Assembly (NCBI GenBank): GCA_019187225.1
Contig: JABAQQ010000035.1
Coordinates: forward strand, 1-64,000
Reading direction: 5' to 3'
DNA: 64,000 bases
Origin: Saprospiraceae bacterium
Lineage (GTDB): Bacteria > Bacteroidota > Bacteroidia > Chitinophagales > Saprospiraceae
Within the stretch, counting starts at the first letter, position 1, and every line of letters begins with the position of its first letter. A model generated the notes under the pieces. That model had not been told where the DNA came from. It did not search any database and saw nothing but the letters and a program-made list of their open reading frames with translations. Shown one piece after another: positions 1-50,634 of this stretch. Made by a program: the position numbers and the translations under genes.

Positions 1-126
1 AGACGGTAGACGGTAGACGGTAGACGGTAGACGGTAGACGGTAGACGGTAGACGGTAGACGGTAGACGGTAGACGGTAGACGGTAGACGGTAGACGGTAG
101 ACGGTAGACGGTAGACGGTAGACGGT
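1..126. repeat. Perfect heptamer tandem array (AGACGGT)x18, left arm of an inverted pair
   Basis: Eighteen uninterrupted copies of AGACGGT run from the window edge, so the true array may extend further left. It is followed by a 48-bp spacer and then by an array of the complementary unit at 175-293. The spacer is itself an imperfect inverted repeat (ATTCATT...AATGAAT, flanked by AAAAAG and TTTTT), so the whole 1-293 region could fold into one very long hairpin. Because 7 and 3 share no factor, this strand contains a TAG stop every 21 nt in every frame, while the opposite strand is open in every frame. There are no unique spacers between units, so it is not a CRISPR array. Confidence 0.95.
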
Positions 127-174
127 AAAAAGACCATTCATTCCAATAAGATACAAATGAATGTTCTAATTTTT

Positions 175-293
175 CCACCGTCTACCGTCTACCGTCCACC
201 GTCCACCGTCTACCGTCCACCGTCTACCGTCTACCGTCTACCGTCTACCGTCTACCGTCTACCGTCTACCGTCTACCGTCTACCGTCTACCGT
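175..293. repeat. Heptamer array (CYACCGT)x17, right arm of the inverted pair
   Basis: Seventeen contiguous 7-bp units in perfect register. Most are CTACCGT, with CCACCGT variants concentrated near the left end (units 1, 4, 5 and 7). It is the reverse complement of the array at 1-126. Its right end overlaps the last 21 nt of the FMN reductase gene on the minus strand, whose stop codon (273-275) lies inside the array. The two unit variants recur at 6456-6511 and, diverged, inside the coding sequence at 17804-17983. Confidence 0.95.
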
Positions 294-857
294 CATCAAA
301 GCTTCCTTCTTCTCCGCTACCGCTTCGGCCAGCCAGAAGAAATTTTTAAGAAAGGCCGCGATGTTTTTTTCGAAGGCCGGTTCGAGCAGCGTGCCCTCTT
401 CGCCGAACCGCTGCAGCACATTTCCTACGGTAAGCATTTGCGGAATCGGGAAGCCGGAAATACCCAATACCAGTTGCTGCATGGCCAATGCCGCCCGGAT
501 GCCGCCCAGCATGCCCGTCGTAACGGATGCTACACCGATGGTTTTGCGGGCAAACTCGCCCTCCTTCAGGTAATCCACCGCATTTTTTAAAGCCGAAGTG
601 TAACTGCCATTGTATTCAGGCGACACGAAGATATGCGCATCGGAAGAGCGGACTTTTTCCGCAAAATCGGTCAGGCCATCGGGGGGATTGGGGTGACGGT
701 GCAACACTTCTTCCATCAGCGGGAAACGATATTCCGCCAGGTCGAGAACTTCCGCCGTATGGATGCCCTGCCGGTTGATGGCATATTCCAAAGCAAGCGC
801 CACCCGGTGCGAAGCGCGGTTGAGTCGGGTGCTGGAGGATAAAATGGTGATGTGCAT
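273..857 (-). CDS. NADPH-dependent FMN reductase-like flavoprotein
   Basis: 194 residues with a flavodoxin-like fold. The N-terminus MHITILSSSTRLNRAS matches the phosphate-binding loop of the NADPH-dependent FMN/azoreductase family, and SPEYNGSYTSALKNAVDY (about residues 79-96) is the hallmark segment that covers the isoalloxazine ring. The family uses NAD(P)H to reduce FMN, quinones or other acceptors in the cytoplasm; the substrate here cannot be told. The last six residues, TVDGRR, and the stop codon are encoded by the heptamer array 175-293, so the native C-terminus probably ended near Met188 and the repeat has replaced or extended it. It is divergent from gmhB with about 170 bp between them. 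Confidence 0.85.
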   Translation of the reverse strand: MHITILSSSTRLNRASHRVALALEYAINRQGIHTAEVLDLAEYRFPLMEEVLHRHPNPPDGLTDFAEKVRSSDAHIFVSPEYNGSYTSALKNAVDYLKEGEFARKTIGVASVTTGMLGGIRAALAMQQLVLGISGFPIPQMLTVGNVLQRFGEEGTLLEPAFEKNIAAFLKNFFWLAEAVAEKKEALMTVDGRR

Positions 858-1025
858 TTTGAAACGTTCAAATATTGGAGGTTACAGGATCGGGGAGGCA
901 AGAAATTTAAGACTTATAATTTTTAGTGTTCTAAAACTGATTTTATTTCCAAAAGTTCAATGCGCCGGTTACGCGAAAATATCTTTCGGCATGCTGAATT
1001 TTGCCGCCTGTAAAAAACGATCCGA

Positions 1026-1580
1026 ATGACTGCCATGACTCACTTGCCGGCCCTGTTCCTCGACCGCGACGGCGTCATCAACGAACGCACGCCAGGCGAC
1101 TACGTGCGCACCCCGGAAATGTTCGTGCCGTCCGAAGGCATGGAAGAAGCCATGCGGCTGTTGTCCGGCTATTTTGGCCGCATTGTCGTCGTCACCAACC
1201 AGGCGGGCATCGGCAAAGGATTGATGACGGAAGAAGATTTACGGGCTGTTCACCAAAAAATGTTCGACCTCGTACAGGAGGCTGGCGGGCGCGTTGACCG
1301 CGTGTACCATTGCCCGCACACCAAAGACGCAGGTTGCCGGTGCCGCAAACCAGCCACTGGCATGGCTTGGCAGGCCCTGGTGGATTTTCCCGATATTGAT
1401 TTTGCCAATACCTGGCTGGTGGGCGATTCCGCTTCGGATATCCGTCTGGGGCAGGCATTGGGAATGCATACCGCTCTCATTACCGGCAAAACGGAAGAAG
1501 CGGAAGAACTCGCTTCCATGAAAATTGATTTCCAGTTCGACTCACTCCTGCATTTTGCCCGCTTCATCGTCGAATGTTAA
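1026..1580 (+). CDS. gmhB: D-glycero-D-manno-heptose 1,7-bisphosphate phosphatase-type HAD hydrolase
   Basis: 184 residues, the usual length for GmhB/HisB-type HAD phosphatases. Visible motifs are FLDRDGVIN (motif I, nucleophile and acid/base Asp), VVVTNQAGIGKG (motif II), the zinc-binding CPH...CRCRKP segment with conserved Cys/His, and LVGDSASDI (motif III). GmhB removes the C7 phosphate from heptose bisphosphate in the ADP-heptose route to LPS core. The second ATG (1038) is an alternative start; the first was kept because nothing in the sequence decides between them. It is followed after about 200 bp by gldN on the same strand, with no obvious functional link. A histidinol-phosphate phosphatase role is possible but no his genes are present. 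Confidence 0.85.
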   Translation: MTAMTHLPALFLDRDGVINERTPGDYVRTPEMFVPSEGMEEAMRLLSGYFGRIVVVTNQAGIGKGLMTEEDLRAVHQKMFDLVQEAGGRVDRVYHCPHTKDAGCRCRKPATGMAWQALVDFPDIDFANTWLVGDSASDIRLGQALGMHTALITGKTEEAEELASMKIDFQFDSLLHFARFIVEC

Positions 1581-1777
1581 AATTTTTAACTTTTACAACA
1601 GGTCTTTGCCGCGCCCCGTTTTGATGAAAGCCTTGTTCGGAAAATTTAAAAATGCTTCCGGCAAGACGTTTTTTTACCCGGAACGCATGCACCCGGGTTA
1701 CTCCCTGCCAGTACTCTTGTCCTGAACTCCGGTCCGTTTTTTCTATTCCTTTTCACAAGTTACTAAACACTACCTAC

Positions 1778-2659
1778 ATGACAAATCTGTTGTCACTGCG
1801 GGGAGCCCGTCTTTTGGGCTGCCTCGGCGGCGCCTTGCTCGCTGCCCACTTCGCGTTCGCGCAAACGCCCGACCCCTTACCTTCATCTCTTGCGGAACAA
1901 ACTGCTCTCCTTCCGCTCGACGATATTACGGAACGGACAGTCGTGAACGAACACCGGCCACTCAAGTACCAACCCATCCGCGAGTCGGACATCCTGTGGG
2001 AAAAACGCATCTGGCGTATCATTGACACGCGGGAAAAGGTGAACCTGCCTTTCGCAGCGCCCGAAGCGCCCTTGTTCACCATTTTGTCGGAGGCCGTGCT
2101 GTCGGGCGATGTCAGGGCTTACAGCACGGAGAACGACCGTTTTACCAAACCGCTGGCAGCGGAAGAGGTGCGCGCCATGCTGTTCAAACGCGATACGATT
2201 TATACCATTGAAGAAGGTACCTATGAAGACAAATTATTGATCGTGGAAAACGAACTCAACTGGGAAGACGTGCGGCGCTACCGCATCAGGGAATCCTGGT
2301 TTTTCGACGCCAAAACGAGCACTCTGCGGGTGCGTATTCTCGGCATCGCTCCGCTCGTAGATGTGAAAGACGCGGAAGGCAATTTCCTGTATGAAAAACC
2401 GCTGTTCTGGGTACACTACCCTTCCGCACGGCCTTTGCTGGCAGGCAAAAAAGTGGTCTCACATGGCGGTAACTACGCTTCTGCCACCACCTGGGAAGAC
2501 CTTTTCGAGATGCGGTATTTCGCCTCTCACATCATGAAAGAAAACAACATCCGGGATATGCGCCTGCAGGATTATTTAACAGGAACCGACCTCCTGCTGC
2601 AATCGGAAAGTATCGGGAATGCCTTGTTCAACAGGGAACAGGATATGTGGAGCTGGTAA
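1778..2659 (+). CDS. gldN: GldN-type gliding motility/type IX secretion protein
   Basis: 293 residues starting at the ATG that gives a signal peptide (LLGCLGGALLAAHFAFAQ); the in-frame extension upstream has no signal-like start. Family features are the N-terminal segment R-I-RESDILWEKRIWRIIDTREKVN, the central LFKRDTIYTIEEGTYEDKLLIVENELNWEDVRRYRIRESWFFDAKTSTL region and the late WEDLFEMRYF...YLTGTDLLLQSE motif; any quoted run is a contiguous part of the protein. GldN/PorN sits on the periplasmic side of the outer membrane with GldK and is part of the ring of the T9SS. In most genomes it follows gldK-gldL-gldM; here it stands alone, so it may be a second copy. Its stop codon lies two bases before the repeat array 2662-2857. 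Confidence 0.85.
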   Translation: MTNLLSLRGARLLGCLGGALLAAHFAFAQTPDPLPSSLAEQTALLPLDDITERTVVNEHRPLKYQPIRESDILWEKRIWRIIDTREKVNLPFAAPEAPLFTILSEAVLSGDVRAYSTENDRFTKPLAAEEVRAMLFKRDTIYTIEEGTYEDKLLIVENELNWEDVRRYRIRESWFFDAKTSTLRVRILGIAPLVDVKDAEGNFLYEKPLFWVHYPSARPLLAGKKVVSHGGNYASATTWEDLFEMRYFASHIMKENNIRDMRLQDYLTGTDLLLQSESIGNALFNREQDMWSW

Positions 2660-2661
2660 AA

Positions 2662-2857
2662 CAGTGGGCAATGGGCAGTGGCAGTGGCAGTGGCAGTGGG
2701 CAGTGGCAGTGGGCAGTGGCAGTGGGCAGTGGGCAGTGGCAGTGGGCAGTGGCAGTGGCAGTGGCAGTGGCAGTGGCAGTGGGCAGTGGCAGTGGGCAGT
2801 GGCAGTGGCAGTGGGCAGTGGCAGTGGGCAGTGGCAGTGGGCAGTGGCAGTGGCAGT
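2662..2857. repeat. CAGTGG/CAGTGGG tandem array, left arm
   Basis: About 30 units alternating irregularly between 6-bp CAGTGG and 7-bp CAGTGGG (one CAATGGG). It begins two bases after the gldN stop codon and ends one base before the stop codon (859-861 of the 2-kb block, i.e. 2859-2861) of the minus-strand S23 gene. The complementary array is at 3285-3342. It is open in several frames and can be read as Gly-Ser/Gln-Trp peptides, which is an artefact of low complexity. Confidence 0.93.
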
Positions 2858-2858
2858 A

Positions 2859-3233
2859 TTAAGGGGAAGGATTTGCGCCAAATTGTTGGGGGTTATATAT
2901 CATGTGTCCGATCAATCGTCTAACCTCATACGATTGTGCCAGCAAATCGTCATAAACGTTTTTTTCGATGTAGCGACAAGAATGGGCAAAGTTCATCCAA
3001 ACCTGGATTTCTGCATTTTCGCCGTCTGCATCCGTCAACTTGCTTATAAAATAAGCAGGATAACGTCTCTTTCGGTATCTCTCGGCTATTTGCGCACAGA
3101 CAGAACGACTCGAACGTCTACCCTGACCACTAAGCGAATATGTTTCCTCTTTGGGAAACGATTTGGATATCTCGAAAATATCCATCGCCAATTTGTATGC
3201 CTTTTGATAGGCGAGCAGATCTGTGAAATCCAT
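2859..3233 (-). CDS. S23/four-helix-bundle protein (23S rRNA IVP-like)
   Basis: 124 residues from the ATG at 3233; an upstream TTG would add nine. The pattern FTDLLAYQKAYKLAMDIF, then FPKEETYSL...QGRRSSRSVCAQIAE, then a late GENAEIQVWMNFA helix is diagnostic of the S23-type four-helix-bundle family, first found encoded inside 23S rRNA intervening sequences and structurally like the Avd accessory protein of diversity-generating retroelements. Its biochemical role is unknown; a nucleic-acid-binding pentamer is the usual structural picture. Here it is not in an rRNA gene: it is enclosed by inverted tandem arrays (2662-2857 and 3285-3342) with almost no other sequence, between the convergent ends of gldN and the M1 peptidase. 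That arrangement suggests a self-contained insertion unit. Confidence 0.85.
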   Translation of the reverse strand: MDFTDLLAYQKAYKLAMDIFEISKSFPKEETYSLSGQGRRSSRSVCAQIAERYRKRRYPAYFISKLTDADGENAEIQVWMNFAHSCRYIEKNVYDDLLAQSYEVRRLIGHMIYNPQQFGANPSP

Positions 3234-3284
3234 AATGAAACGCGTTTGATCAGGCAGCAAAATATAATATTTGTTTCATATGCG

Positions 3285-3342
3285 CTGCCCACTGCCCACT
3301 GCCCACTGCCACTGCCACTGCCACTGCCACTGCCTACTGCCA
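3285..3342. repeat. CTGCCA/CTGCCCA tandem array, right arm
   Basis: Nine units of CTGCCA, CTGCCCA and CTGCCTA, the reverse complement of the array at 2662-2857. It ends exactly at the stop codon (3343-3345) of the minus-strand M1 peptidase. The arms are unequal (about 196 and 58 bp), as expected if each array expands and contracts independently by slippage. Confidence 0.93.
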
Positions 3343-6009
3343 TCACGGCGTATCGAACATATCGTAGTACAACTTCAGCGTCGGGTCGGTCTCTTTTTCT
3401 TTGATCTCGCGGATGATTGCGCCGAGTGCTTCCACCTTTGCAGCGTCCCCTTTTTCGCGGAAGGAGGTGCGCATATCGGATATGGCTTTGGTGGCGGCGA
3501 AACGGCGAAACTCGCTGGTTTCCATGTTGAATGAGACTGCCTTGAGTTTATCTACGCCTCCATCGAGAATGGCGGGATCGCCGAGTCCGAAGAGGAATTT
3601 CTGGTAGTTGTCGAAGAAAGAAAAGGCCGCCATGTAATCCACTTTGTCCAATTTTTTCTCAAAGAAAGGAAGATTGGCGCGATCGGGGTATTGAGCGAAC
3701 AATTCCGCCAGCGTAGTGGATATGGCATCGCTGTCGTCGGTCTCCAGCGATTTGGAAGCGGCGATGGCGGCTTGCGGGTCCAGTTTGGCGAGGGCGTCGA
3801 GCGAGGAGCCGACAACGCTGTATGGCTGATCGGCCGTCAAGCCTTTTTGAAAGATAGGGATGTACTGTTTGTCGCCCGTATCGCCGAGAATTTTGATGGC
3901 CATGGACCGGACGCCGGGATCGAAGTCATTTTCAGCCATTTTTACGATGACCGGCAGCACGGCGGGATCGGTCTCATCCACCCGGTTGAGCGCCATTTGA
4001 CGGATGGAATAGAATTTATCATTCAGGGCCTCTTTCAATACCTGTTTGGCGAGGTCGGATTTTTCGCTGCGCAGGGCTTCGAGCGCTTCCTGGCGGTCGC
4101 GGAAGAGGGGAGCATTGCGGTACATAAAGGCGAATTCTTCCGGCGTATGGTCATCGCTTTTGACACACAGCAGGGCTTTATCGGCATCCACGTTGATAAG
4201 GGCGGGTTTCGCCGGCGCGTCGAAAGTGAAAGACTGGCTGCGTTTGGTGACGCGTATATTCTCACGGCGCACTTTGCCGGGACCCTCGTAAATATCGACT
4301 GCTAAGGGCAGGTCGTACACATGCGGCACACCTTCTCCTTCCTGATTTTGGGTGATGGTCACGCTGGCCTTTTTGGCAGCATCGTCCCAGCCGTAAGTAA
4401 TGTCGAGACTTGGGTGACCTGCACTGAAAAACCACTGGTTGAAAAACCAGTTGAGGTCTTGCCCCGTGACATCCTCGAACACGAGCCGCAGTTCATGGGC
4501 CTCCACGTCGGTGTATTCATTTTTTTTCAGGTATCGGCCCAGGGCGGTGAAAAAAGCGTCGTCGCCCACCTGGTTGCGGAGCATGTGCAGGATGGCGCCA
4601 CCCTTGTTGTAGGAATGGGCATCGAACATGTCTTCGCGGTTACCATAACCGAAATGAATGAGGGGGTGGCCGCCGCCTGCGGCAGAAAAGATGTAGCCCT
4701 GTTGTTCCTGCATTTCGTGAAAATCGGCCTGGTCGCGTCCGTATTTATGTTCGAGCCAGAGGTATTCGGAATAATTGGCAAAACCTTCATTGAGGGTCAG
4801 GTTGGCCCAGCTTTCGGTGGTCACCAGGTCGCCGAACCAATGGTGGAACATTTCATGCGCCACTACTTTTTCATTGGTCAGGTGGTCGTCGAGCAGCTCG
4901 CGTTTGGTCTTTTGCATGAATTCGCCGAAGATGACCGCCGTCGTATTCTCCATGGCGCCGCTCACATAATCGCGCACGACGACCTGCGAAAATTTGGGCC
5001 AGGGATAGGCATAGCCGAGTTTGTTGGAAAAAAACTCGAGCATTTCGGTCGTATGCGGATAGATATCGCGGGCATGCGGTTCGAATTTCGGCTCCACATA
5101 ATATTCCACCGGGATGTTGCGCCATTTGTCTTTTACGATGGCGTATTCCCCGATCGCCATCATAAACAGGTAAGGCGCATGGGGTTGGTCCATTTTCCAG
5201 TAATCGGTACGGGTGCCGTCGGCATTCTTTTTGGACGAAACGAGCACTCCGTTGGAAAGGGTTTTGAACTTGTCTTCAACGGTAATGTACATTTCCTGGG
5301 TGCAGCGTTCGTTGGGTTTGTCCACCGTAGGAAACCAGAAAGAGTTGCTTTCCGTCTCGCCTTGTGTCCAAATCTGCATGGGTTTGTCCTTATCGGCGCC
5401 GTCGGCGTTGATGAAATACAGCCCTTTGTCGCTGGTGATGGCTGCACTGCCGCCAAAGGACTCGCGTTCGTCGGGTTTGGCAGTATAGGCGATGGCGATC
5501 CTGAACTCGTCGTTGCGCGTGTAGGTTTTGCCAAGGTAGACGGTGAGTTGTTCGTTGTTGTAGTCGTATTTGAGCTGTTCCGTTTTTCCGTCGTAAGTGA
5601 CCGATTTAATGTCGAAGTTTTTCGCATCGAGCGTTACTTTGTCCGTCGCATAAAACCAGGGGCGCATGGTCAGCGTGGCTCTTCCGTTGGCGCGCTTTTT
5701 CGGCCAATCGAACGAAATTTCGATTTTCGTGTGGATCAGGTCGTGTTCGAAGGTGTGGGAGGGATTGTAGGGCGGCAGGGTATCCGAAAATTGCGCCGCT
5801 CCGGGCGTTACTTCGGCTTCGTCCAGAATGGAATACTCCGCCGGTTCTTCGCTGTCTTCATCACCCATGAGCGGTTTGCCCATGGTATCCCATGCAGCGG
5901 GCTCGTCCGGCTGGGTGGGGGTGGAAGTGGTGGAGGTGCCGGCTTTGGGCGTACAACTCAGGTAAATCGTAAAAGCGGCCAGAAGCGCCGCAGCAAAAAA
6001 ACTTCGCAT
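3343..6009 (-). CDS. Lipoprotein M1-family aminopeptidase
   Basis: 888 residues. The N-terminus ends a hydrophobic stretch with LSC, a lipobox, so the protein is probably anchored to an envelope membrane. The M1 gluzincin core is complete: substrate-binding GAMEN (SGAMENTTAV), zinc motif HEMFHHWFGD with the third ligand Glu in NLTLNEGFANYSEY, and a later Tyr region (DAHSYNKGG). The C-terminal 250 residues are helical repeat-like (HEAT/armadillo-type, with RQMALNRV and RSMAIKILGD units), as in many M1 enzymes. It would remove N-terminal residues from peptides outside the cytoplasm. Residues 20-75 are a Thr/Pro/Glu-rich linker. The gene is bounded by tandem arrays on both sides: 3285-3342 touches its stop and 6038-6156 lies 29 bp upstream of its start. 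Confidence 0.9.
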   Translation of the reverse strand: MRSFFAAALLAAFTIYLSCTPKAGTSTTSTPTQPDEPAAWDTMGKPLMGDEDSEEPAEYSILDEAEVTPGAAQFSDTLPPYNPSHTFEHDLIHTKIEISFDWPKKRANGRATLTMRPWFYATDKVTLDAKNFDIKSVTYDGKTEQLKYDYNNEQLTVYLGKTYTRNDEFRIAIAYTAKPDERESFGGSAAITSDKGLYFINADGADKDKPMQIWTQGETESNSFWFPTVDKPNERCTQEMYITVEDKFKTLSNGVLVSSKKNADGTRTDYWKMDQPHAPYLFMMAIGEYAIVKDKWRNIPVEYYVEPKFEPHARDIYPHTTEMLEFFSNKLGYAYPWPKFSQVVVRDYVSGAMENTTAVIFGEFMQKTKRELLDDHLTNEKVVAHEMFHHWFGDLVTTESWANLTLNEGFANYSEYLWLEHKYGRDQADFHEMQEQQGYIFSAAGGGHPLIHFGYGNREDMFDAHSYNKGGAILHMLRNQVGDDAFFTALGRYLKKNEYTDVEAHELRLVFEDVTGQDLNWFFNQWFFSAGHPSLDITYGWDDAAKKASVTITQNQEGEGVPHVYDLPLAVDIYEGPGKVRRENIRVTKRSQSFTFDAPAKPALINVDADKALLCVKSDDHTPEEFAFMYRNAPLFRDRQEALEALRSEKSDLAKQVLKEALNDKFYSIRQMALNRVDETDPAVLPVIVKMAENDFDPGVRSMAIKILGDTGDKQYIPIFQKGLTADQPYSVVGSSLDALAKLDPQAAIAASKSLETDDSDAISTTLAELFAQYPDRANLPFFEKKLDKVDYMAAFSFFDNYQKFLFGLGDPAILDGGVDKLKAVSFNMETSEFRRFAATKAISDMRTSFREKGDAAKVEALGAIIREIKEKETDPTLKLYYDMFDTP

Positions 6010-6037: not shown

Positions 6038-6156
6038 GTGCTGGTTATTGGTTGCTGGTTATTGGTTGCTGGTTATTGGTTGCTGGTTATTGGTTGCTGG
6101 TTATTGGTTGTTGGTTATTGGTTGTTGGTTATTGGTTGCTGGTTATTGGTGATTGG
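6038..6156. repeat. Alternating heptamer array TTATTGG/TTGCTGG, 17 units
   Basis: Seventeen 7-bp units in perfect register, alternating TTATTGG with TTGCTGG or TTGTTGG, which gives a 14-bp higher-order period. It lies just upstream of the M1 peptidase start (minus strand). No complementary arm was found nearby, so this is a single-arm example of the heptamer family, with different base composition from the ACGGT-type arrays. Confidence 0.93.
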
Positions 6157-6455: not shown

Positions 6456-6511
6456 CCACCGTCTACCGTCCACCGTCCACCGTCTACCGTCCACCGTCTA
6501 CCGTCCACCGT
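6456..6511. repeat. Heptamer array CCACCGT/CTACCGT, 8 units
   Basis: Eight in-register units of the same two variants that make up 175-293, followed directly by a T-run. It lies 150 bp upstream of the mscS start in its presumed leader and on this strand contains no stop codon in any frame, which is why an open frame runs through it into mscS. No partner arm was found close by. Confidence 0.93.
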
Positions 6512-7813: not shown

Positions 7814-7855
7814 GGATGATTGCGGATTGCGGATTGCGGATTGGAGATTGGTTTG
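7814..7855. repeat. Short heptamer array TGCGGAT-like with flanking duplication
   Basis: Six 7-bp units (three exact TGCGGAT with diverged ends) directly after the stop codon of the upstream gene. It separates two diverged copies of an approximately 30-bp segment beginning GGTTTGGAAGG (7786 and 7849). It is another example of 7-bp periodicity at a 3' gene boundary. Confidence 0.8.
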
Positions 7856-8164: not shown

Positions 8165-11100
8165 ATGAAGCAATCTTACAAAAAAATTTATTTCACCCTC
8201 GTTTGGTGCCTGTTCATGGCCGGGAGCGCGCTCTACGGTCAGCGGCAACTGACGGGAACGGTGACCGATGCCGAAACCGGTGAGTCGCTGATCGGAGCCA
8301 GCGTTATTGTACAAGGTACAACAGTTGGCGCTGTCACCGACGTCGAGGGCAGGTATGTGATCCGGCTGCCGGAAGGGGCCAACATGCTACGGGTTTCCTA
8401 TACCGGCTACTCCGAGCAAACGGTATCCATCGGAGCATCCGATGTCATGGACTTTAAATTGTTGCCCAGCGCGCAAATAGAAGAAGTACTCGTCATCGGT
8501 TACGGCACCGTAAAAAAAGAAGACGCGACCGGCTCGGTCAATGCCATCACGAGCGAAGATTTCAACGGCGGCGCCATCGTGTCGCCGGAGCAATTGATCG
8601 CCGGTAAGATCGCCGGCGTGCAGATCACGTCGAACAGCGGCGAACCGGGCGGCGGCATTACGGTGCGTATCCGCGGCGGCACCTCCGTGAGCGCCAGCAA
8701 CGAACCTTTGTACGTCATTGACGGCGTGCCGATTGATAACGAAGGCGTTGCCAGCGGCAGAAACCCGCTCAACTTCCTCAATCCCAGCGAGATCGAATCC
8801 TACACGGTTTTGAAAGATGCCTCCGCCGCCGCCATTTACGGCTCGCGCGGCGCCAATGGCGTGATCATCATCACGACCAAAAAGGGCAAAAAGGGAAGTC
8901 CGGGACGCCTGACGTACGACGGCTATTTCACCACCACCTCTTTCACCGAAAACCCGCCGGTACTGAGCCCGCAGGAGTTCCGCAACGTGGTTACTTTCGT
9001 CGCGCCCAACCGCTTGGAGAAACTCGGCGACGCCAATACCAACTGGTTCGACGAGATCACCCAAACCGCTATGGGACACAACCACTCGCTGGCTTTCACC
9101 GGCGGTTCGGAGAACATCGGTTACCGGGCCTCCGTCGGCTATCAGAAATTAGAGGGTGTGCTGCGCGGCTCGGAGACTGAACGCACGAGCCTGGGCTTGA
9201 ACTACAACCATGCGATGTTGTCCAACAAACTGAACGTCAACGTCAATCTGCGCGGCGCTTTTACCAAAGACCTCTTCGACCAGGGACAGATCGGCTCGGC
9301 GTGGTTCTTCGACCCCACCCAGCCGGTGTATGATGCCGACAACCGCGATTTTGCCGGATATTGGGAATACGGTGTCGGTCTCGCCCCCCGCAACCCCGTT
9401 TCTACGTATCAACAAATCCAGGATGAGGGGCGCAGTTTCCGCAACCTCGGCAACATCGAGGCCGAATACAAATTCGACGGTCTGATCAACGGCCTGAGCG
9501 CTAAAGTCAACCTGGGTTTCGACATTATGAACGGCAAAAAACGGCGCTTTGTACCGACGACTTACTCCAACACGCAGGTGACCAACTTCAACGGCGAATT
9601 GTATGTGGAAGACCCCAGCCGCACCAGCCAGTTACTGGAATCCTACCTGACGTACAAGAAGACATTCGGCGACGCGCACCGATTCGAACTGGTGGGTGGT
9701 TATTCCTGGCAGGATTTCAACGAAGAATACCCCTCCTACCGGGCCTACAACCTTTCGACCAACGCTTTCGGATTCAACAGCACCAGCCCGGCGGAAGACT
9801 TCGAAGCGCGCAACTTCGTGATCGAAAACCGCCTGATCTCTTTCTACGGCAGGCTCAACTATGCCTTGTTCGACCGGTATCTGCTCACCGCAACGCTGCG
9901 CCGCGACGGTTCTTCCCGCTTCGGGCCCGACAACCGATGGGGTACTTTCCCGTCGGCGGCAGTCGCCTGGCGCGTACTGGAGGAAAATTTCGCCGACGGC
10001 CTGAAAAACATTTTCTCCGACCTGAAACTACGCTTGGGTTGGGGCGTCACGGGCAACCAGACCATTCCCGACTACGGCTACATCCCGACCTATACTTTCA
10101 GCGATGCGAGAGCGCGTTACCAGTTCGGCTATGCCAACGGCGAACCCGTTTTCGTCAGCACTGTCCGCCCCAACGGCTACGACATCGGTCTGAAATGGGA
10201 AGAAACTTCCGCTCTCAACATCGGCCTCGACTTCGGCTTCTGGAACGGCAGGCTGAGCGGTACCATCGAATACTACTCGAAAAACACCAACGACCTGTTG
10301 TTCACCGTCAATATTCCCGCCGGCACCAACCTGACCGACCGCATTTTGACCAATATCGGCGAATTGGAGAACAAAGGCGTTGAACTGACCCTCGACGCGG
10401 GCGTTGTCAAAAACAGGGTTTTCTCCTGGAACATAGGCTTCAACCTGGCAGCCAACAAGAACAAGGTACTGGCGATTGACCAGGTGAGTCAGCAGGGCGT
10501 CCTGACCGGCGGCATCTCCGGCGGCGTGGGTAACTTTATCCAGATCCTGCAGGTGGGCCAACCGGTAAATTCGTTCTACGTGTTCCAGCAAAAGTACGAC
10601 GCCGCCGGCAACCCGCTGATAGATGGCGTGGACCACAACGACGACGGAGAAGTGGATGAAGAAGACCTTTACGAAGACCTGAACAAAGACAATGCCGGCA
10701 GCGACCTCGACAAAAGGCCATACAAAAAGCCCGCTCCCGATCTGCTCATCGGCGCGACATCGCAAATGAATTTCAAAAACTTTGATTTCAGTTTCACGCT
10801 GCGCGCCAATGCCGGCAACTACGTGTACAACAACAACGCTTCCAACGGAGGCTATTTCAATATCGTGAACGAACGCGGCGACATTTTTCTGAACAACATG
10901 CACACTTCCGGACTGGTGACCAAATTCCAGGGACCGCAGTACTTCTCCGACTATTACGTGGAAGACGGTTCGTTCCTGCGCGTGGACAACGCTACGCTGG
11001 GCTACACCTTCCCGAAAATGCCCGGAAGGTCGAGCCTGCGCGTGTACGTCACTGCTCAGAACCCGCTGCTGTTCACGAAGTATTCGGGCCTCGATCCCGA

Positions 11101-12865: not shown

Positions 12866-13003
12866 GTGGGACTATTCGACATTAGACTTTTAGACATTGG
12901 ACATTGGACTTTTAGACATTGGACATTGGACATTAGATTCCTTGTGTCAATCAGTCCAAAGTCCCAAAGTCCAATAGTCCAACGTCCAATAGTCCAACGT
13001 CCA
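12866..13003. repeat. Degenerate inverted repeat of GGACATT/GTCCAAT-type words
   Basis: The left arm (about 12866-12935) is built of ACATTGG, AGACTTTT and similar 7-8 bp words; the right arm (about 12952-13003) is built of their complements (GTCCAAT, GTCCAAC, GTCCAAAG). The two arms can pair as an imperfect hairpin in the leader of the SusE-like gene, which starts 19 bp later. The same words in the same inverted layout recur at 25121-25194 and 50568-50634. Confidence 0.85.
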
Positions 13004-13021
13004 AATTTCAACATTCACGAC

Positions 13022-16604: not shown

Positions 16605-19600
16605 ATGACTTTTACGCTCCCTCAAGTACAAACCCTCGTCCGCGACCACTACGGCCTCGAAGTATCTGTCCAAAACCTTCCCGGTGAAATTGACCTGAAT
16701 TTTTTCGTAAAAACAGCGGAAGGCACTGCGCACGTTCTGAAAATTGCCCACCCCGGTGAACGCCGCGAAAACCTCGAATTTCAGCATGCCTTGATGACCC
16801 GCCTGAAGACGGCTGAATGGGGCCTTGAAATTCCGCAGGTCGTCCCGGCTGTTTCGGGGAAAGCCATTGTCGGTCTTACCATGCCGGATGGCTCCACCAC
16901 TCTGATGCGCCTGTTTACCTGGATAGAAGGGCGCTGTCTGGCCGACGTCCGTCCGCATACGCCCGCCTTGCTGGAACAAGTGGGAGCATTATGCGGCAAA
17001 CTCTGCGCTGCCCTGGCCGGCTTCGACCATCCTGCCGCCCACCGACTTCTCAAATGGGATCCGTCACAGGCCGCCTGGACACGCGGGCATTTATCTGCCA
17101 TCGAAGAAAAAGAAAAACAGGCGCTGGCCCAATATTTTTTCCAACTATTTGAACAACAGGCACTTCCGCTGTTGCCTGCGTTGCGCCGGAGCGTCAACTA
17201 CAACGATGCGAATGACTACAACGTGCTTGTAAGCCACGACCCCGAAAACCCCGTCGTACCGGGCGTGATTGACTTTGGCGACGCCGTTTTTACACATACC
17301 GTCAATGAACTGGCCATCGCCGCCGCTTACGCCGCCCTGCACAAACCCGACCCCCTGACGGCGATCTTCCACCTGACCAAGGGTTTTCACCGCATCTTTC
17401 CGCTGACGGAGCAGGAAGTCCGGGCCCTCTTCCCGCTCATCGGGGCGCGGCTGCTCATCAGCGTCACCTGCTCGGCCATCAACCGCCTGGAAAATCCCTC
17501 CAATACCTACCTCCAGATCAGCGACGGCCCGGCCTGGGCATTGCTGGAAAAACTCCGCAACATTCCCCCTGCTTTGGCCCATGCCACCCTGCGCCATGCC
17601 TGCGGATGGGAACCCTGCCCGGACAATGCACTTTTTGTACAATGGGCAAATGACAACTTCCGGCAAGTCAAACCGGTTGTCGCCGTGCCGCTCACCGGCC
17701 CCGATGTCGTCTGGCTCGACCTCAGCGTCGGAAGCCCCGACCTGGGCAACTACGCCGACATCGAAGACGCACAACTGCTGCACCGCCGCATTCAGGAGCA
17801 GCTGACGGTAGACGGTGGAGGGTGGAGGGTAGACGGTGGACGACTGACGGTAGACGGTGGAAGGCAGACGGTGGACGGCGGACGAGAAGTGGATGATGCC
17901 GGACAAAATCGAGGAAAAAGCGACATATCACCGCCCGAATCATCGCCTGAGCCGTCCACCGTCCACCGTATACCGTCCTCCCTCCCCGGCATCGGCCGCT
18001 ACGGCGAAATCCGCCCGTTCTACACCACCGACGCTTACGAAGTGCGCGGCAACGAGGGCTCCGAATGGCGCACGGTGCACATCGGTCTGGATATTTTTTT
18101 ACCGCCCGGCACGCCGGTTTTTGCACCGCTCGACGGATCGGTGCACAGTTTTCAGGACAACGCCAAAGACCGCGACTACGGCCCGACGATCATCCTGGAA
18201 CACCGCGTGAACGAACACCTGACTTTTTATACGCTCTTCGGTCACCTGACACGGGACTCGCTCGAAGGACTTCAAACCGGCCAAAGCATCCGCGCCGGAC
18301 AGGAATTTTGCCGGATCGGCCCCATGCCCGAAAACGGCAACTGGTCGCCGCACCTGCATTTCCAGGTCATACTCGATATGCTCGGCATGACGGGCGATTT
18401 TCCCGGCGTGGCATTCCCCGCGCAACGCGCCGTATGGACAAGCCTCTGTCCCGACCCCTGGTTGCTGCTCACCGGCCGGTTTTCAGAAAAAACCGGAGGG
18501 GTGGGTGCAACAGCCATTCTGGATTACCGAAAAAAACATCTGGGCAAGAACCTCAGCGTTTCGTACCGCCAACCCCTCGATATACTGCGCGGCTGGCGCC
18601 AATACCTTTTCGACGATACAGGCCGGCGTTATCTGGATACCGTGAACAACGTAGCGCACGTGGGCCACGAACACCCGCGCGTCGTGCGCGCCGGACAAAG
18701 GCAAATGGCCGTTCTGAACACCAATACACGCTATTTACATCCCAACATCGTGCATTTTACGGAGGCTCTGCTGGAAACCTTTCCACCGGCGCTCGACGTG
18801 GTGTTTCTGGTCAACAGCGGCAGCGAGGCCAATGAACTGGCCATGCGGCTGGCGAAAACATACACGGGTCAGCAGGACATGATCGTTGTGGAAGCGGGTT
18901 ATCATGGCAACACGCAGGGATGCATTGACATCAGTTCGTACAAATTCGACGGCCCCGGCGGCAAAGGCGTCCCACCCCACGTGCACGCCGTGCCGCTGCC
19001 CGATGCATACCGGGGCCAGTACCGCGGCAACAACGCCGAAACCGGCCGGCAATACGCCGCCCATGTGGGCGACGCCTTGCAACACATCCGCGACGCCGGC
19101 AGGGGAGTTGCCGCTTTCATTTGCGAGCCGGTCATCAGTTGCGGCGGACAGATCACGCTGCCGCCCGGCTATTTGAGCGAAGTGTTCAGTCAGGTACGGG
19201 CTGCCGGCGGACTTTGCATCGCCGACGAAGTTCAAACGGGTTGCGGGCGGCATGGGCTGCACTTTTGGGCCTTCGAAGAACACGGAGTGGTGCCGGACAT
19301 CGTCACCATCGGCAAACCCATCGGCAACGGTCATCCGCTCGGCGCCGTGGTGACGACACGCGCCATTGCCGAAGCGTTCGCCAACGGAATGGAATATTTC
19401 AACACCTTCGGCGGAAATCCTGTGTCGTGCGCCATCGGACTGGAGGTTTTGCGCGTGGTTCGGGAAGAAGGGTTGCAGCAAAATGCTTTGGAAACAGGCG
19501 CTTACCTGAGCGGACAACTGAGCGAACTGGCGCGCCGATTCCCTGTCATCGGCGACGTTCGGGGGCCGGGATTGTTCATCGGCGTCGAATTGGTCAACGA

Positions 19601-25120: not shown

Positions 25121-25194
25121 ACATTGGATTTTTGACAATGGACATTTGACTAAATGATTGGCCCCCAGGGTCAAATGTCCAACTTCCAATGTCA
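25121..25194. repeat. Inverted repeat of GACATTGGA/GGACATTTGAC words
   Basis: GACATTGGA and GGACATTTGAC (25121-25151) are answered by GTCAAATGTCC and TCCAATGTC (25171-25194), giving a two-part stem with a 19-nt loop. It lies 31 bp upstream of the small HTH gene. The words match the arrays at 12866-13003 and 50568-50634. Confidence 0.88.
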
Positions 25195-43650: not shown

Positions 43651-46584
43651 TTACCGCAGCCGGCTCATATCCCCAATCCCCACAAACCCCGCCCAAAAAT
43701 ACGGATGTGCATCCAGCCCGCCATGCTTCCGGAAATAATCGCCCCGCGCCTTCGACAGCGCCTCATCCTTCGGCATTCCCCGCTTCAGGTTCCGGTAGAA
43801 AAACACCATAAAATCCTTCGTCTTCGCGTCGTCTACCGACCACAGCGTGGTCACAATGCTTTTCGCTCCCGCGTACGCGAAGGCCCGCGCCAAGCTGATG
43901 ATACCCTCGCCCCGCTTCAACTCCCCGATGCCCGTCTCGCAGGCCGAGAGCACCACCAGGTCGGCGTTGAGTGACAGGTTGTATATGTCGCGGCAGAACA
44001 GCAATTCGTTTTCGAGCGAATCCTTGCGCGGACTGAATACTAAGTAAGAGTAATCGCCCGCCCGGTCGTCGGCCTTGCCGTGTGTGCTGAGGTGCAGGAT
44101 GCGGTAATCACCCGCTACGAGGTTGAAGCATTCCTCCGTCGCCATCGTGTCGGTGAATACGTCGCCGCCCAGCAGTTTTTGCGCGGCTGCGACTTCGGCG
44201 CCGGAATGCCTCAGCGGCTCCAGGTCGCCGGGGGCGACAGACCGGGTGGCGAGCAGGTCGTCCAGACCCACCAGCACGCTGGTGTCGCCGTCGTAATACG
44301 GAGCGAAAGCGGCGAGCATTTTTTCCGGTTTGCGGCGGTGTTGTTTTTCCGTCATTTCACGCAGCAACGTGGCGGAATAGCAGTAACTGATGCTGTGTTC
44401 GTGGTCTTTTTGCCGGCCGAAATAGGGGTATTCGTGGAACCGGTCTTTCCGCACCGGCAATCCTGTAAGCAATGCCTCGAAGGGAAGGTATCCCAGCGCA
44501 CCATCGGGCACGATCACCACGCGGCGGGGCAACAGCGAATCCACCGGAGCGAGCAGTTTTTGATAAAGAGCCGTAGCCGACCCGATGTACGTGCCGGTGC
44601 AGGAGTCGCGCAGCACATCGGTGCGGTTCGAGGCGGTGTGGTAGCCATAAATGCCGTGACGCAGTTGTTTGACCCAATCCTCCAGCGGGAAGTCTTTTTT
44701 GACCTCGAAAACGCGGTAGTCATCTTTTTTGACCAGAAAAATAAAGATGCTACTGTCGCCGACGAAGTATTCGAGCAGGGCCTGGTCGGGCTGAAGAAGG
44801 TTTTGTTGAACGTTTTCGACGGATTCTACGCGGAGGTCGTATTTGAGGCGGTAGTAATCGGGGCATTGTACCTCAAAAGACTGGATTAATGATTCATATT
44901 GCCATCGCATCTCAAGCAATCTGGAAGTAATTGTCATTAATAACGAATCATTCTTGCGTTCCTGCTTGCTTTCTTCCTGATTGCGTTGTATATCTAAAGC
45001 GCTTATCCGACTTTTGAGGTAAAGCTCTTTTTGTCGCAGGGAGTCTGGGATACGTGCGAACTGCATGGCGACCTTCTCCTGAACTGCTGCATACAACAGA
45101 AAGGATTTTGATTTCTCATTGATCATGAACGCAACTCCCATGTTTGGTTCTTTATTTTCCTTGATGTTTTCTAATTCTGCCAGGATAGCCTGCTCATAGA
45201 CAGTAAACACATCGGAAATGGTATTGGCTTGTGCAACAGTCGTAGGCAGATCGTTTCTTTTTTGTTCAATCAACCCGATGCACAAATCATATGTCTTCCG
45301 CGCATGTTGAAGATAATTATTTTTTAAAGATATATTACTTTTGGCCAATACAAACAGTAATTGAGCCTTTAATGAAAGTGCACGTCTGAGATAGTCATAA
45401 TTCGTGCTCTTCTCAATAGAAGGATTATGAAAAACATCTTCACCGTCAAAACCAGGGCAAAGTGTCATCAGTGACTGTTGAACCATTGAAAGCGCTTCTT
45501 CAAACCGTCCAAGCCGGGCATAAAGGGAGGCAATCCGGTATTGATTTCCACCAATACTATAATGTAAATATGGGTAATTGCGACGTGTGATTTCAATACT
45601 ATGCCGATAACACCGAAGTGCCCCTGAAGTGTCTTGCAGCAGTTCGTAAACATTCCCCAAATCGGTATATGGTATGGTCAACCAAGGGTCATAGGCGCCA
45701 ACTATTGCTTCTTGTAAATCAATATGACGTTCAAAAGCCCTGGCTGCACCGCTATAATCACCGCGGCGGTATAAAATATTGGCCAACCGTTGCCATGCTA
45801 TTGATTTTTGCCGATCCGAAACTGCTGAGTCATCTACTATCTGCCTGAAGAGAGCTGTGGCTTCATCTAATTGGCCGGAGTTGGCTGCACTTCCAGCCAT
45901 GTCTATGAGTATCCCCGCACATTTAGCGGTATGGGAGTAAGCCTCCTGTTGACAAATCGATAAGGCAAAAGTCAAATGCTCCTTTTCCCGCTGACGGTCT
46001 TTTATATTTCCATAACACGCACCCAATCGCTGGTGGCATTTGGCTATATCAAGCGGCTCACCTGGTTTGACAGTATGCCAAATACTTAAAGCCGTTTGGT
46101 GATACTGAATAGCAGAGTGATAAGATTGACGAAATTCCTCTATAAGACCAAGTAAACTATAACAATCGGCTACTTCCTTGCAATTTCGGCCTATTGTAAT
46201 ATCTGCAAAAGCAATTCCTTTTTTCAGGTATTCCACAGCTTCCGCAAATTGTCGCTTGCGGTGATATACATCTCCGAGGATATAATACAGATTTATCCAT
46301 TGAAGCGAATCAATACTTTTATCTCCGGATTCAACGTATTGCAGGGCCTGTGATATATCGGATATAATACTATCACAGGAACTAATGCGAAGGAGATTGC
46401 AGAACCCGGATTTAGCAACTGAACGTTGGATCAGTTTATTTGCCCATGCAGTGTCTGATAAAGCAATTGCCGTCAATTTCTGCGAAAATACGTGATCCGT
46501 CCACCCAAAGAGAAGGCAGAATGCAATAAATGCTAACAAACACTTTCGATATATTTCACTTTCCCTCATGCTGATCTTATTCAT
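43651..46584 (-). CDS. Secreted TPR-CHAT protease-like protein
   Basis: 977 residues: signal peptide (about 12-35, FGWTDHVFSQ), a long array of TPR repeats (about 60-450, for example AEAVEYLKKGIAFADIT and SAIQYHQTALSIWHTV), a helical linker and a C-terminal CHAT caspase-like domain (about 680-977). Catalytic features are RILHLSTHGKADDRAG (His about 835) and VVLSACETGIGELKRGEG (Cys about 880), with the usual ending HPYFWAGFVGIGD. The predicted signal peptide puts it outside the cytoplasm, unlike many CHAT effectors. The start codon overlaps the stop of the SprB-repeat gene (ATGA), so the two are translated together. Confidence 0.9.
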   Translation of the reverse strand: MNKISMRESEIYRKCLLAFIAFCLLFGWTDHVFSQKLTAIALSDTAWANKLIQRSVAKSGFCNLLRISSCDSIISDISQALQYVESGDKSIDSLQWINLYYILGDVYHRKRQFAEAVEYLKKGIAFADITIGRNCKEVADCYSLLGLIEEFRQSYHSAIQYHQTALSIWHTVKPGEPLDIAKCHQRLGACYGNIKDRQREKEHLTFALSICQQEAYSHTAKCAGILIDMAGSAANSGQLDEATALFRQIVDDSAVSDRQKSIAWQRLANILYRRGDYSGAARAFERHIDLQEAIVGAYDPWLTIPYTDLGNVYELLQDTSGALRCYRHSIEITRRNYPYLHYSIGGNQYRIASLYARLGRFEEALSMVQQSLMTLCPGFDGEDVFHNPSIEKSTNYDYLRRALSLKAQLLFVLAKSNISLKNNYLQHARKTYDLCIGLIEQKRNDLPTTVAQANTISDVFTVYEQAILAELENIKENKEPNMGVAFMINEKSKSFLLYAAVQEKVAMQFARIPDSLRQKELYLKSRISALDIQRNQEESKQERKNDSLLMTITSRLLEMRWQYESLIQSFEVQCPDYYRLKYDLRVESVENVQQNLLQPDQALLEYFVGDSSIFIFLVKKDDYRVFEVKKDFPLEDWVKQLRHGIYGYHTASNRTDVLRDSCTGTYIGSATALYQKLLAPVDSLLPRRVVIVPDGALGYLPFEALLTGLPVRKDRFHEYPYFGRQKDHEHSISYCYSATLLREMTEKQHRRKPEKMLAAFAPYYDGDTSVLVGLDDLLATRSVAPGDLEPLRHSGAEVAAAQKLLGGDVFTDTMATEECFNLVAGDYRILHLSTHGKADDRAGDYSYLVFSPRKDSLENELLFCRDIYNLSLNADLVVLSACETGIGELKRGEGIISLARAFAYAGAKSIVTTLWSVDDAKTKDFMVFFYRNLKRGMPKDEALSKARGDYFRKHGGLDAHPYFWAGFVGIGDMSRLR

Positions 46585-50531: not shown

Positions 50532-50567
50532 TTTTTTAAAGTTTAGATATGTGGACAAATTAAATTA

Positions 50568-50634
50568 ACATTGGATGTTGGACATTTGGCCTTGACAACC
50601 GATCGTATAGTCCAATGTCAAAAATCCAATGTCC
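50568..50634. repeat. Inverted repeat of ACATTGGAT/GGACATT words
   Basis: ACATTGGATGTTGGACATT-type words on the left are answered by AGTCCAATGTC and ATCCAATGTCC on the right. It lies 37 bp upstream of the SprB-repeat gene start and uses the same vocabulary as 12866-13003 and 25121-25194. Confidence 0.85.

What the first reader, a model, noticed from the sequence alone, without database searches (positions are those of the whole stretch)
1..3345. Inverted heptamer tandem-repeat elements: a possible minimal mobile or expanding element family
At least nine places in this window carry 6-8 bp tandem words, most in exact 7-bp register: 1-126/175-293, 2662-2857/3285-3342, 6038-6156, 6456-6511, 7814-7855, 12866-13003, 17804-17983, 25121-25194 and 50568-50634. 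Six are inverted pairs with a short or gene-sized interior. They share architecture more than sequence (ACGGT-type, CAGTGG-type, TATTGG-type and GGACATT-type words), and many sit flush against stop codons. That is not what random microsatellites look like. I infer a common process that seeds complementary heptamer arrays, possibly linked to the S23 four-helix-bundle protein.
Basis: partly seen in the sequence, partly recalled or inferred. Interest (0 to 1): 0.85.

Follow-up and report, generated by a model that had tools for sequence, protein, structure and literature searches.

The report
Repeat arrays paired with S23 genes
In this bacterium small genes of the poorly understood S23 family sit between mirror-image arrays of short repeated DNA words, related genes tend to keep the same word, and the words are also scattered across the genome without the gene, which points to an overlooked kind of mobile repeat element.

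Summary
In detail: all nine places carry the words and six are inverted pairs, though two (25119, 50568) are inverted pairs more than tandem arrays. In the window's genome (Saprospiraceae by its nearest named relatives) 10 of 11 S23/IVP (PF05635) genes lie between complementary tandem arrays, of nine word types. In the genus 53 of 67 S23 loci have strongly complementary flanks, against 9 of 849 other ORFs. The word follows S23 sequence (Mantel r 0.38; best of 2000 permutations 0.09). Stand-alone arrays match S23 words of their own genome (45 of 60; equal-sized sets from other genomes average 5). Same-word units occupy unrelated sites, and four of four tested are missing at the orthologous spot of a close relative. 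The G-rich word is the 5' arm in 67 of 70 loci. The same plan occurs on cyanobacterial plasmids, and published Xanthomonas heptamer arrays share its polarity. Best reading: an S23-encoded, REPtron-like repeat element, similar in plan to 23S rRNA intervening sequences but living between genes. That S23 itself recognises the word is inferred; the moving enzyme was not found.

The parts
2859..3233 (-). S23/IVP four-helix-bundle gene (ATG at 3231-3233; the ORF from TTG runs 2859-3260)
   Evidence: PF05635 E 3.7e-27, 95.1 bits, cut-off 33.8; PDB sequence hits 2rld and 2gsc/XCC0516, E 5.4e-5 and 1.6e-4
3285..3342 (-). 5' arm of the S23 element (on the gene's strand GGCAGTGG words, period 6/7)
2662..2857 (-). 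3' arm of the S23 element (on the gene's strand CCACTGCC words, period 6/7/13); its first word starts 3 nt after the last base of the gldN stop codon
   Evidence: the unit folds as RNA at -244.6 kcal/mol, z -7.0 against 20 shuffles
1..294 (.). S23-free inverted array pair, AGACGGT (1-127) and ACCGTCT (177-294), 49-bp spacer; word of S23 locus L032 of the same genome
6039..6150 (+). stand-alone array TGCTGGTTATTGGT (period 14); cosine 0.67 to L194 of G022 and 0.52 to L034 of the own genome
6455..6511 (-). stand-alone array of the ACGGTGG word (cosine 0.98 to L032)
7818..7851 (+). stand-alone array GATTGCG after a stop codon (cosine 0.47 to S23 locus L038, just below the 0.5 cut-off)
12870..13004 (.). 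inverted array pair GACATTGGAC / GTCCAATAGTCC; cosine 0.33 and 0.53 to S23 locus L035 (the first arm is nearer to L045 of G034, 0.37)
17804..17978 (.). inverted pair GACGGTG / CCGTCCA inside a 1108-aa ORF, between its APH and Peptidase_M23 domains; first arm cosine 0.85 to L032
25119..25193 (.). short degenerate inverted pair GGACATTGGA / TCCAATGTC
   Evidence: sequence read, ends checked
50568..50634 (.). short degenerate inverted pair ACATTGGA / TCCAATGTC
   Evidence: sequence read, ends checked

Best explanation
The arrays belong to a family of mobile repeat units whose marker gene is S23/IVP. A full unit is: G-rich word array, S23 gene, complementary array, placed between genes and often starting at a stop codon. 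SHOWN: S23 genes sit between complementary arrays; related S23 genes tend to share a word; units of one word family lie at unrelated sites and are polymorphic between close relatives; S23-free arrays of the same words, single or in inverted pairs, are dispersed through the same genome; orientation is nearly fixed (G-rich 5' arm; G-rich strand as coding strand behind stop codons). INFERRED: the S23 protein, of the family of the solved pentameric four-helix bundle XCC0516, binds its own word as hairpin RNA or single-stranded DNA and gives the family its specificity, so that S23 units act as autonomous copies and S23-free arrays as their satellites or relics. Arrays then lengthen and shorten by slippage. 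The cutting or copying step would be done by an enzyme of the host or of another element. The transcribed stem (arms pair around the S23 message) would be removable by RNase III, as in 23S rRNA intervening sequences, which would make insertion behind a gene harmless.
For: 10 of 11 own S23 genes sit between complementary arrays, nine word types; 53 of 67 genus S23 loci with flank complementarity of 25 or more against 9 of 849 other ORFs; mismatched-flank null 7 of 413 against 33 of 70. Word follows S23 sequence: Mantel r 0.38, maximum of 2000 permutations 0.09, 70 loci. Cognate stand-alone arrays 45 of 60 in the own genome (label permutation 0.0002), 22 of 55 in G021 (0.0010), 3 of 6 in G007 (0.0012). 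Genus members without S23 match: 0 arrays in 238 kb (G002) and 1 in 144 kb (G013), against 20 in 220 kb of G000, 55 in 400 kb of G021 and 6 in 400 kb of G007. Mobility: in 8 of 12 comparisons of units of one word family, covering three families, no flanking gene is shared; four of four tested units are absent at the orthologous site of a relative 92-96% identical there. Polarity: 67 of 70 S23 loci; inverted pairs 21 of 22 (G000), 19 of 21 (G021), 0 of 1 (G007); beside stop codons 16:2 and 20:8. Same plan on cyanobacterial plasmids, 10 of 14 loci with complementarity of 20 or more.
Against: No catalytic domain and no partner gene was found: four genomes with 5-11 S23 matches have no reverse-transcriptase match, and Y1 transposase number does not follow S23 number once genome size is allowed for. 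G007 has 7 S23 matches but only 6 arrays in 400 kb. Eight of 67 genus loci have flank scores under 20, and L041 has no arms. 15 of 60 own stand-alone arrays match no own S23 word at the cut-off used. In loci from the whole phylum the arms are mostly short and degenerate. No target-site duplication could be read, and gain or loss at the polymorphic sites is unknown. Binding of the word by S23 is untested; the sequence-word link could be joint descent without binding.
Confidence: 0.72

Rival explanations
1. S23 is a post-transcriptional regulator of the host; the arrays behind genes are its binding sites in 3' untranslated RNA (or terminator-like stems), and the arms around S23 are its autoregulation.
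For: Arrays near stop codons have the G-rich strand as coding strand; the unit folds as a very stable RNA; [quoted passage not shown]
Against: Many divergent S23 copies per genome with different words; presence and absence between close relatives at four of four tested sites; an array pair inside coding sequence (17804-17978). Conservation of target genes was not tested.
Confidence: 0.15
2. Passenger model: another enzyme (Y1/IS200-like transposase, reverse transcriptase of a diversity-generating retroelement, or replication slippage plus gene conversion) makes and spreads the arrays; S23 genes merely live in them.
For: Y1 transposases and reverse transcriptases occur in the genome; two of its three reverse transcriptases lie 2.4 and 5.5 kb from S23 genes L032 and L039 (noticed after the fact).
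Against: G005, G006, G010 and G016 have 5, 11, 7 and 7 S23 matches and no RT match (G010 is only 82% complete); no partial correlation of S23 number with Y1 or RT number; two of three own Y1 genes sit in palindromes of their own; the word follows S23 sequence.
Confidence: 0.15
3. Ordinary microsatellites: words expand by polymerase slippage, and inverted pairs arise by chance or fold-back; the S23 link is coincidence.
For: Heptamer arrays are over-represented among long simple repeats in many bacteria and slippage was proposed for them (as reported in PMC4679880 and PMC4692102, passages).
Against: Association, word match, polarity and complementarity lie far beyond the controls; two S23-free genomes of the genus almost lack arrays in the stretches seen.
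Confidence: 0.03

Closest known systems
23S rRNA intervening sequences (IVS) with S23/IVP ORF (Leptospira, Coxiella)
   Same: S23 ORF between inverted repeats that pair in RNA; the Coxiella IVS has tandem heptamers (GACAGAT) just before the ORF and a 28-bp terminal stem (PMC4990558, passages).
   Different: Here the units studied lie between protein genes, there are up to 11 PF05635 matches per genome in the genus and 16 in one genome of the phylum sample (G077), arms can be hundreds of bp of tandem words, and S23-free cognate arrays are spread over the genome.
REP sequences and their RAYT transposases (REPtrons, REPINs)
   Same: Gene between inverted copies of its repeat, with the same repeat dispersed in gene-free form (from recall, titles and starts of abstracts).
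   Different: The protein is a four-helix bundle, not a Y1/HUH nuclease; repeats are tandem words, not single palindromes. Two of the three Y1 genes of this genome have palindromes of their own.
Heptamer arrays: STRR of cyanobacteria, GGGAATC of Xanthomonas, GGGGA(T/C)T of Nostoc, TAACTGA of Beggiatoaceae
   Same: 7-bp tandem words, mostly between genes; in two Xanthomonas genomes 70 and 75 convergent inverted pairs, and the G-rich strand mostly on the coding strand within 50 bp after stop codons (PMC4692102, passages): the same polarity as here.
   Different: No link to an S23 gene in the passages read; 'S23', 'XCC0516' and 'four helix' do not occur in that paper's main text. That paper found 83% of the X. 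[quoted passage not shown] axonopodis and few inverted pairs in Nostoc, so those arrays look more stable or differently arranged than the units here.
Avd of diversity-generating retroelements
   Same: Related profile: bAvd hit of 37.9 bits for the window protein.
   Different: Below the bAvd cut-off of 40; no reverse transcriptase match on the window's contig.
MITEs
   Same: Small inverted-repeat elements between genes; S23-free pairs here have interiors of 8-498 bp.
   Different: No parent transposase and no target-site duplication shown; arms are tandem words of variable number.

Membership tests
23S rRNA IVS element | encodes S23/IVP protein | tested here: met
   PF05635
23S rRNA IVS element | ORF enclosed by inverted repeats | tested here: met
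23S rRNA IVS element | inserted in a 23S (or 16S) rRNA gene | tested here: not met
   the window locus lies between gldN and an M1 peptidase gene; the sites compared in G007/G009 lie among protein-coding ORFs. Other loci were not each checked for rRNA.
23S rRNA IVS element | excised from the transcript by RNase III | not testable with these tools
   only the fold was computed
REPtron (RAYT with REPs) | Y1/HUH transposase between the inverted repeats | tested here: not met
   the gene is PF05635; the three own Y1_Tnp matches are elsewhere
REPtron (RAYT with REPs) | dispersed gene-free copies of the cognate repeat | tested here: met
   45 of 60 stand-alone arrays
REPtron (RAYT with REPs) | repeat is a single tagged palindrome | tested here: not met
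   tandem words
MITE | terminal inverted repeats | tested here: met
MITE | target-site duplication | tested here: inconclusive
   junctions at four sites are blurred by the arrays and by other sequence in the empty allele
Avd of a diversity-generating retroelement | adjacent reverse transcriptase with template and variable repeats | tested here: not met
   the three own RT matches are on other contigs than the window
STRR / long simple sequence repeats of 5-11 nt | tandem 5-11 nt words, many per genome | tested here: met
   910 overlapping matches to three units of ACCGTCT (up to 2 mismatches) in the genome
STRR of Calothrix/Nostoc | same words as the published STRR | not tested
   the 1990 paper was not looked up; words beside S23 genes on Nostoc plasmids were GCAGGGG-type

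The most novel reading that the evidence does not exclude
S23/IVP proteins are word-specific nucleic-acid-binding factors of a separate class of mobile repeat element found in Bacteroidota, Cyanobacteria and probably Xanthomonas. The unexplained heptamer arrays of these bacteria (STRR, GGGAATC and the like) are its dispersed satellites, and the 23S rRNA intervening sequences are rDNA-adapted members of the same family.
Probability: 0.5. Interest if true: 0.93.

Novelty: new variant of a known kind. Interest (0 to 1): 0.85.

Why it matters
Two old puzzles would become one testable question: what the S23/IVP protein of 23S rRNA intervening sequences does, and why some bacteria are full of 6-10 bp tandem arrays. 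It also gives a ready-made set of protein-word pairs for finding how a small helical bundle might read a short repeated word.

Tried and rejected
Gene order at the window's own locus: in 80 M1-peptidase loci from named genomes the window's gldN and S23 proteins found no hit. Some of these loci end just after the peptidase and a divergent S23 could be missed, so the window's insertion could not be dated. Three (L071, L084, L146) carry an S23-free inverted array pair right after the peptidase stop.

Reverse transcriptase as the missing enzyme: rejected as a requirement. Another gene between long inverted repeats (L313) is a Y1_Tnp without tandem words; of the other eight non-S23 ORFs with high scores none was identified.

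Concerted evolution of the two arms: no consistent pattern over four orthologous pairs. Arms are less alike within a locus than between orthologues in L206, L214 and L215, more alike in L199, about equal in L189/L191 and identical throughout in L204/L068; not claimed. A decayed S23 in six larger interiors of array pairs: no hit at E 0.01. Same-word arrays on 50 kb of a Nostoc plasmid: none. Flanks of XCC0516 in Xanthomonas: no such genome could be reached. No structure prediction was run.

Errors of mine: term too long; wrong strand or frame; scripts stopped at a later item, after printing the results used here.

Choice of rows: of the 20 own-genome 20-kb stretches eight were taken near arrays or S23 genes already known, and one more (L222) holds an array listed; density is therefore quoted from the other 11 (20 arrays in 220 kb), while the 45 of 60 uses all of them and the window. 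Of 110 S23 loci in the set (69 genus, 11 order, 30 phylum) 70 passed the filter for detectable complementary arrays (58, 3 and 9) and entered. Left out of the 67: L041 and L197 (reading frame under 90 aa). L056 was used only. The 30 phylum loci are the best-scoring matches, one per genome, not a random draw. In the stop-codon count 26 of 60 own and 9 of 55 G021 arrays were set aside because a plain ORF of 100 aa or more covers them. The cyanobacterial loci are 14 of the 20 listed of 30 records, without a matched null of their own.
Full report
WHAT IS THERE. The window is contig 31 of a 7.18-Mb genome whose nearest named relatives by M1 peptidase are Saprospiraceae genomes. The listed arrays are real and beyond chance; details are in the observation check. 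They are not special to the window: a 21-base pattern of three ACCGTCT units has 910 matches (2 mismatches allowed, overlapping places counted) in the genome, and the same pattern read backwards has none.

S23 GENES SIT BETWEEN THE ARRAYS. The gene inside 2662-3342 is an S23/IVP four-helix-bundle gene (PF05635). The genome has 11 PF05635 matches. Ten lie between complementary tandem arrays; the eleventh, L041, is a partial match near a contig end and has none. Nine word types occur: GACGGTG, GGCAGT (two loci), GGTTATTGGTTGCT, GACGTTGGACTTCTT, TGAGTGTT, GATTGGTG, GATATTGT, GGTTGGCG and a 10-mer, GTTTGAAATT. In the genus, 53 of 67 S23 loci with usable flanks have a complementarity score of 25 or more between the two flanks (up to 400 bp each), 59 of 67 have 20 or more, and 8 have less. 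Of 853 ORFs of 100 aa or more in 1.26 Mb of three genomes, 13 reach 25; four of those are S23 genes, leaving 9 of 849. Upstream flanks paired with downstream flanks of other S23 loci give 7 of 413, against 33 of 70 true pairs. In 30 loci from the whole phylum the arms are mostly short and degenerate, yet by my count of the rows 15 of 30 reach 20 and 22 of 30 reach 18, against 12 and 29 of 413 in the pooled null.

THE WORD FOLLOWS THE PROTEIN. Over 70 loci with detectable arms, word similarity follows S23 similarity (Mantel r 0.38; largest of 2000 permutations 0.089). Of pairs with normalised S23 score 0.65 or more, 16 of 31 share a word (cosine above 0.5); of those under 0.2, 2 of 1565 do. Part of this is shared descent at one site, so I looked at flanking genes in 12 comparisons: four are orthologous sites, and eight (three word families, not independent of each other) share no gene but S23 and its arrays. 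Two S23 genes of genome G020, 88% identical and with the same word, lie at unrelated sites of that genome.

DISPERSED COGNATE ARRAYS. In 464 kb of the own genome there are 60 arrays away from S23 genes (20 in the 220 kb chosen without knowledge of arrays). 45 of 60 match a word of the ten own S23 loci. As many words drawn at random from all 58 genus loci match 12.4 on average (fraction reaching 45: 0.0002); words of other genomes only match 5.0 on average, 22 at most. G022, which has an S23 of the GACGGTG family, alone matches 18. G021: 22 of 55 match its three own words (random sets 3.8, fraction 0.0010; others only: mean 3.1, maximum 22). G007: 3 of 6 (fraction 0.0012; others only: mean 0.1, maximum 1). 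Two genus members without any S23 match have 0 arrays in 238 kb and 1 in 144 kb. G007, with seven S23 matches, has only 6 in 400 kb, so S23 number alone does not set array number.

POLARITY. On the gene's strand the 5' arm is the G-rich one in 67 of 70 S23 loci. In inverted pairs of the samples (two of those of the own genome enclose S23 genes) the G-rich arm comes first in 21 of 22 (own genome) and 19 of 21 (G021); the single pair found in G007 was C-first. Arrays within 40 nt of a stop codon are G-rich on the coding strand 16:2 (own) and 20:8 (G021); ORF ends within 40 nt were 18 stops and 11 starts (own) and 28 and 12 (G021).

PRESENCE AND ABSENCE. G007 and G009 share gene order at 92-96% DNA identity at the sites compared. 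S23 units L201 and L055 of G007 and L198 and L051 of G009 are each missing at the matching spot of the other genome: four of four tested. Two further S23 genes are shared by descent (L206/L199 and L214/L215). L218 was not tested. At the L198 site G007 has a hairpin of about 50 bp with one TTTGAAGG word on each side, and in both genomes the stop codon of a 343-codon open frame is part of the first word. At the L201 and L051 sites the other genome has a hairpin of another family, and at the L055 site 489 bp of other sequence. No site duplication could be read, and gain and loss could not be told apart.

BEYOND THE PHYLUM. A search of plasmid records with the window's S23 protein found 30 records; all genera printed are cyanobacteria, 15 records being Nostoc. 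I fetched 14: 10 of 14 have flank complementarity of 20 or more, two more have 17 with visible arrays, and two (L325, L336) do not; most words are AGCAGGGG-type, G-rich first. One 50-kb plasmid stretch had no further array of that word. The Coxiella 23S rRNA intervening sequence has three GACAGAT heptamers just before its S23 ORF and a 28-bp terminal stem (PMC4990558, passages). [quoted passage not shown] X. campestris carries the S23-family protein XCC0516 (PDB 2gsc; five four-helix bundles by the title cited in PMC3936711). Against a simple equation, that paper found most Xanthomonas arrays conserved in place between two species, and saw no link to known mobile elements. Whether XCC0516 lies between such arrays could not be checked.

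MECHANISM. Shown: pairing of gene and word, dispersal of the word, polymorphism, polarity. Inferred: recognition of the word by S23 and the satellite status of gene-free arrays. Missing: the enzyme. A reverse transcriptase is not required (G005, G006, G010 and G016 have 5, 11, 7 and 7 S23 matches and no RT match), and Y1 transposase number does not follow S23 number once genome size is allowed for (partial r 0.11, p 0.60). The window unit would fold as RNA into one long stem with the S23 message in the loop (-244.6 kcal/mol, z -7.0, 20 shuffles).

PRINT. Paper searches for S23, IVP or four-helix-bundle proteins with repeats and for heptamer arrays listed no report of the link. The library holds open-licence papers only, searches showed only the top of long lists (15 of 178 and 25 of 2144), and no listed paper was read whole, so this is no proof of absence. 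The original STRR paper, Mrazek 2007 and Ralph and McClelland 1993 are known to me only through passages of the papers read and from recall.

Noticed in passing
G000:C7:140649-141287 (L317) and G000:C21:41535-42122 (L319): Two of the genome's three reverse transcriptases lie 2.4 and 5.5 kb from S23 genes (L032, L039). Both have a bAvd ORF beside them (PF22296, 73.2 and 59.5 bits) and L317 has repeated ORFs with an RGGSW-type stretch, so they look like diversity-generating retroelements (label from recall).
   Followed up: partly
window 17804-17978: An inverted array pair lies inside a 1108-aa ORF, between its APH and Peptidase_M23 domains: a repeat unit apparently captured as coding sequence.
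   Followed up: partly
L320 (G000:C9:100766) and L322 (G000:C24:111164): Y1/IS200-like transposase genes flanked by long palindromes of their own (CCCACCGATAAATCGGTGGG; CGGCTGGCGCGAGTCTCCG), which look like ordinary REPtron-like loci beside the S23 system; L321 has 22-23 bp tandem repeats nearby instead.
   Followed up: partly
L241:9616-9725 and L245:4503-4683, 9695-9866: Other dispersed repeats of about 105-180 bp with many copies in G009 and G007; what they are was not worked out.
   Followed up: no
L324, L326, L330, L333, L334: S23 genes on cyanobacterial plasmids lie next to tyrosine recombinase/integrase genes in 5 of the 14 loci fetched.
   Followed up: no
window 47369-48986: 243-bp tandem repeats in the gene 46581-50558, a protein with SprB repeats and a secretion-system C-terminal tail.
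   Followed up: no
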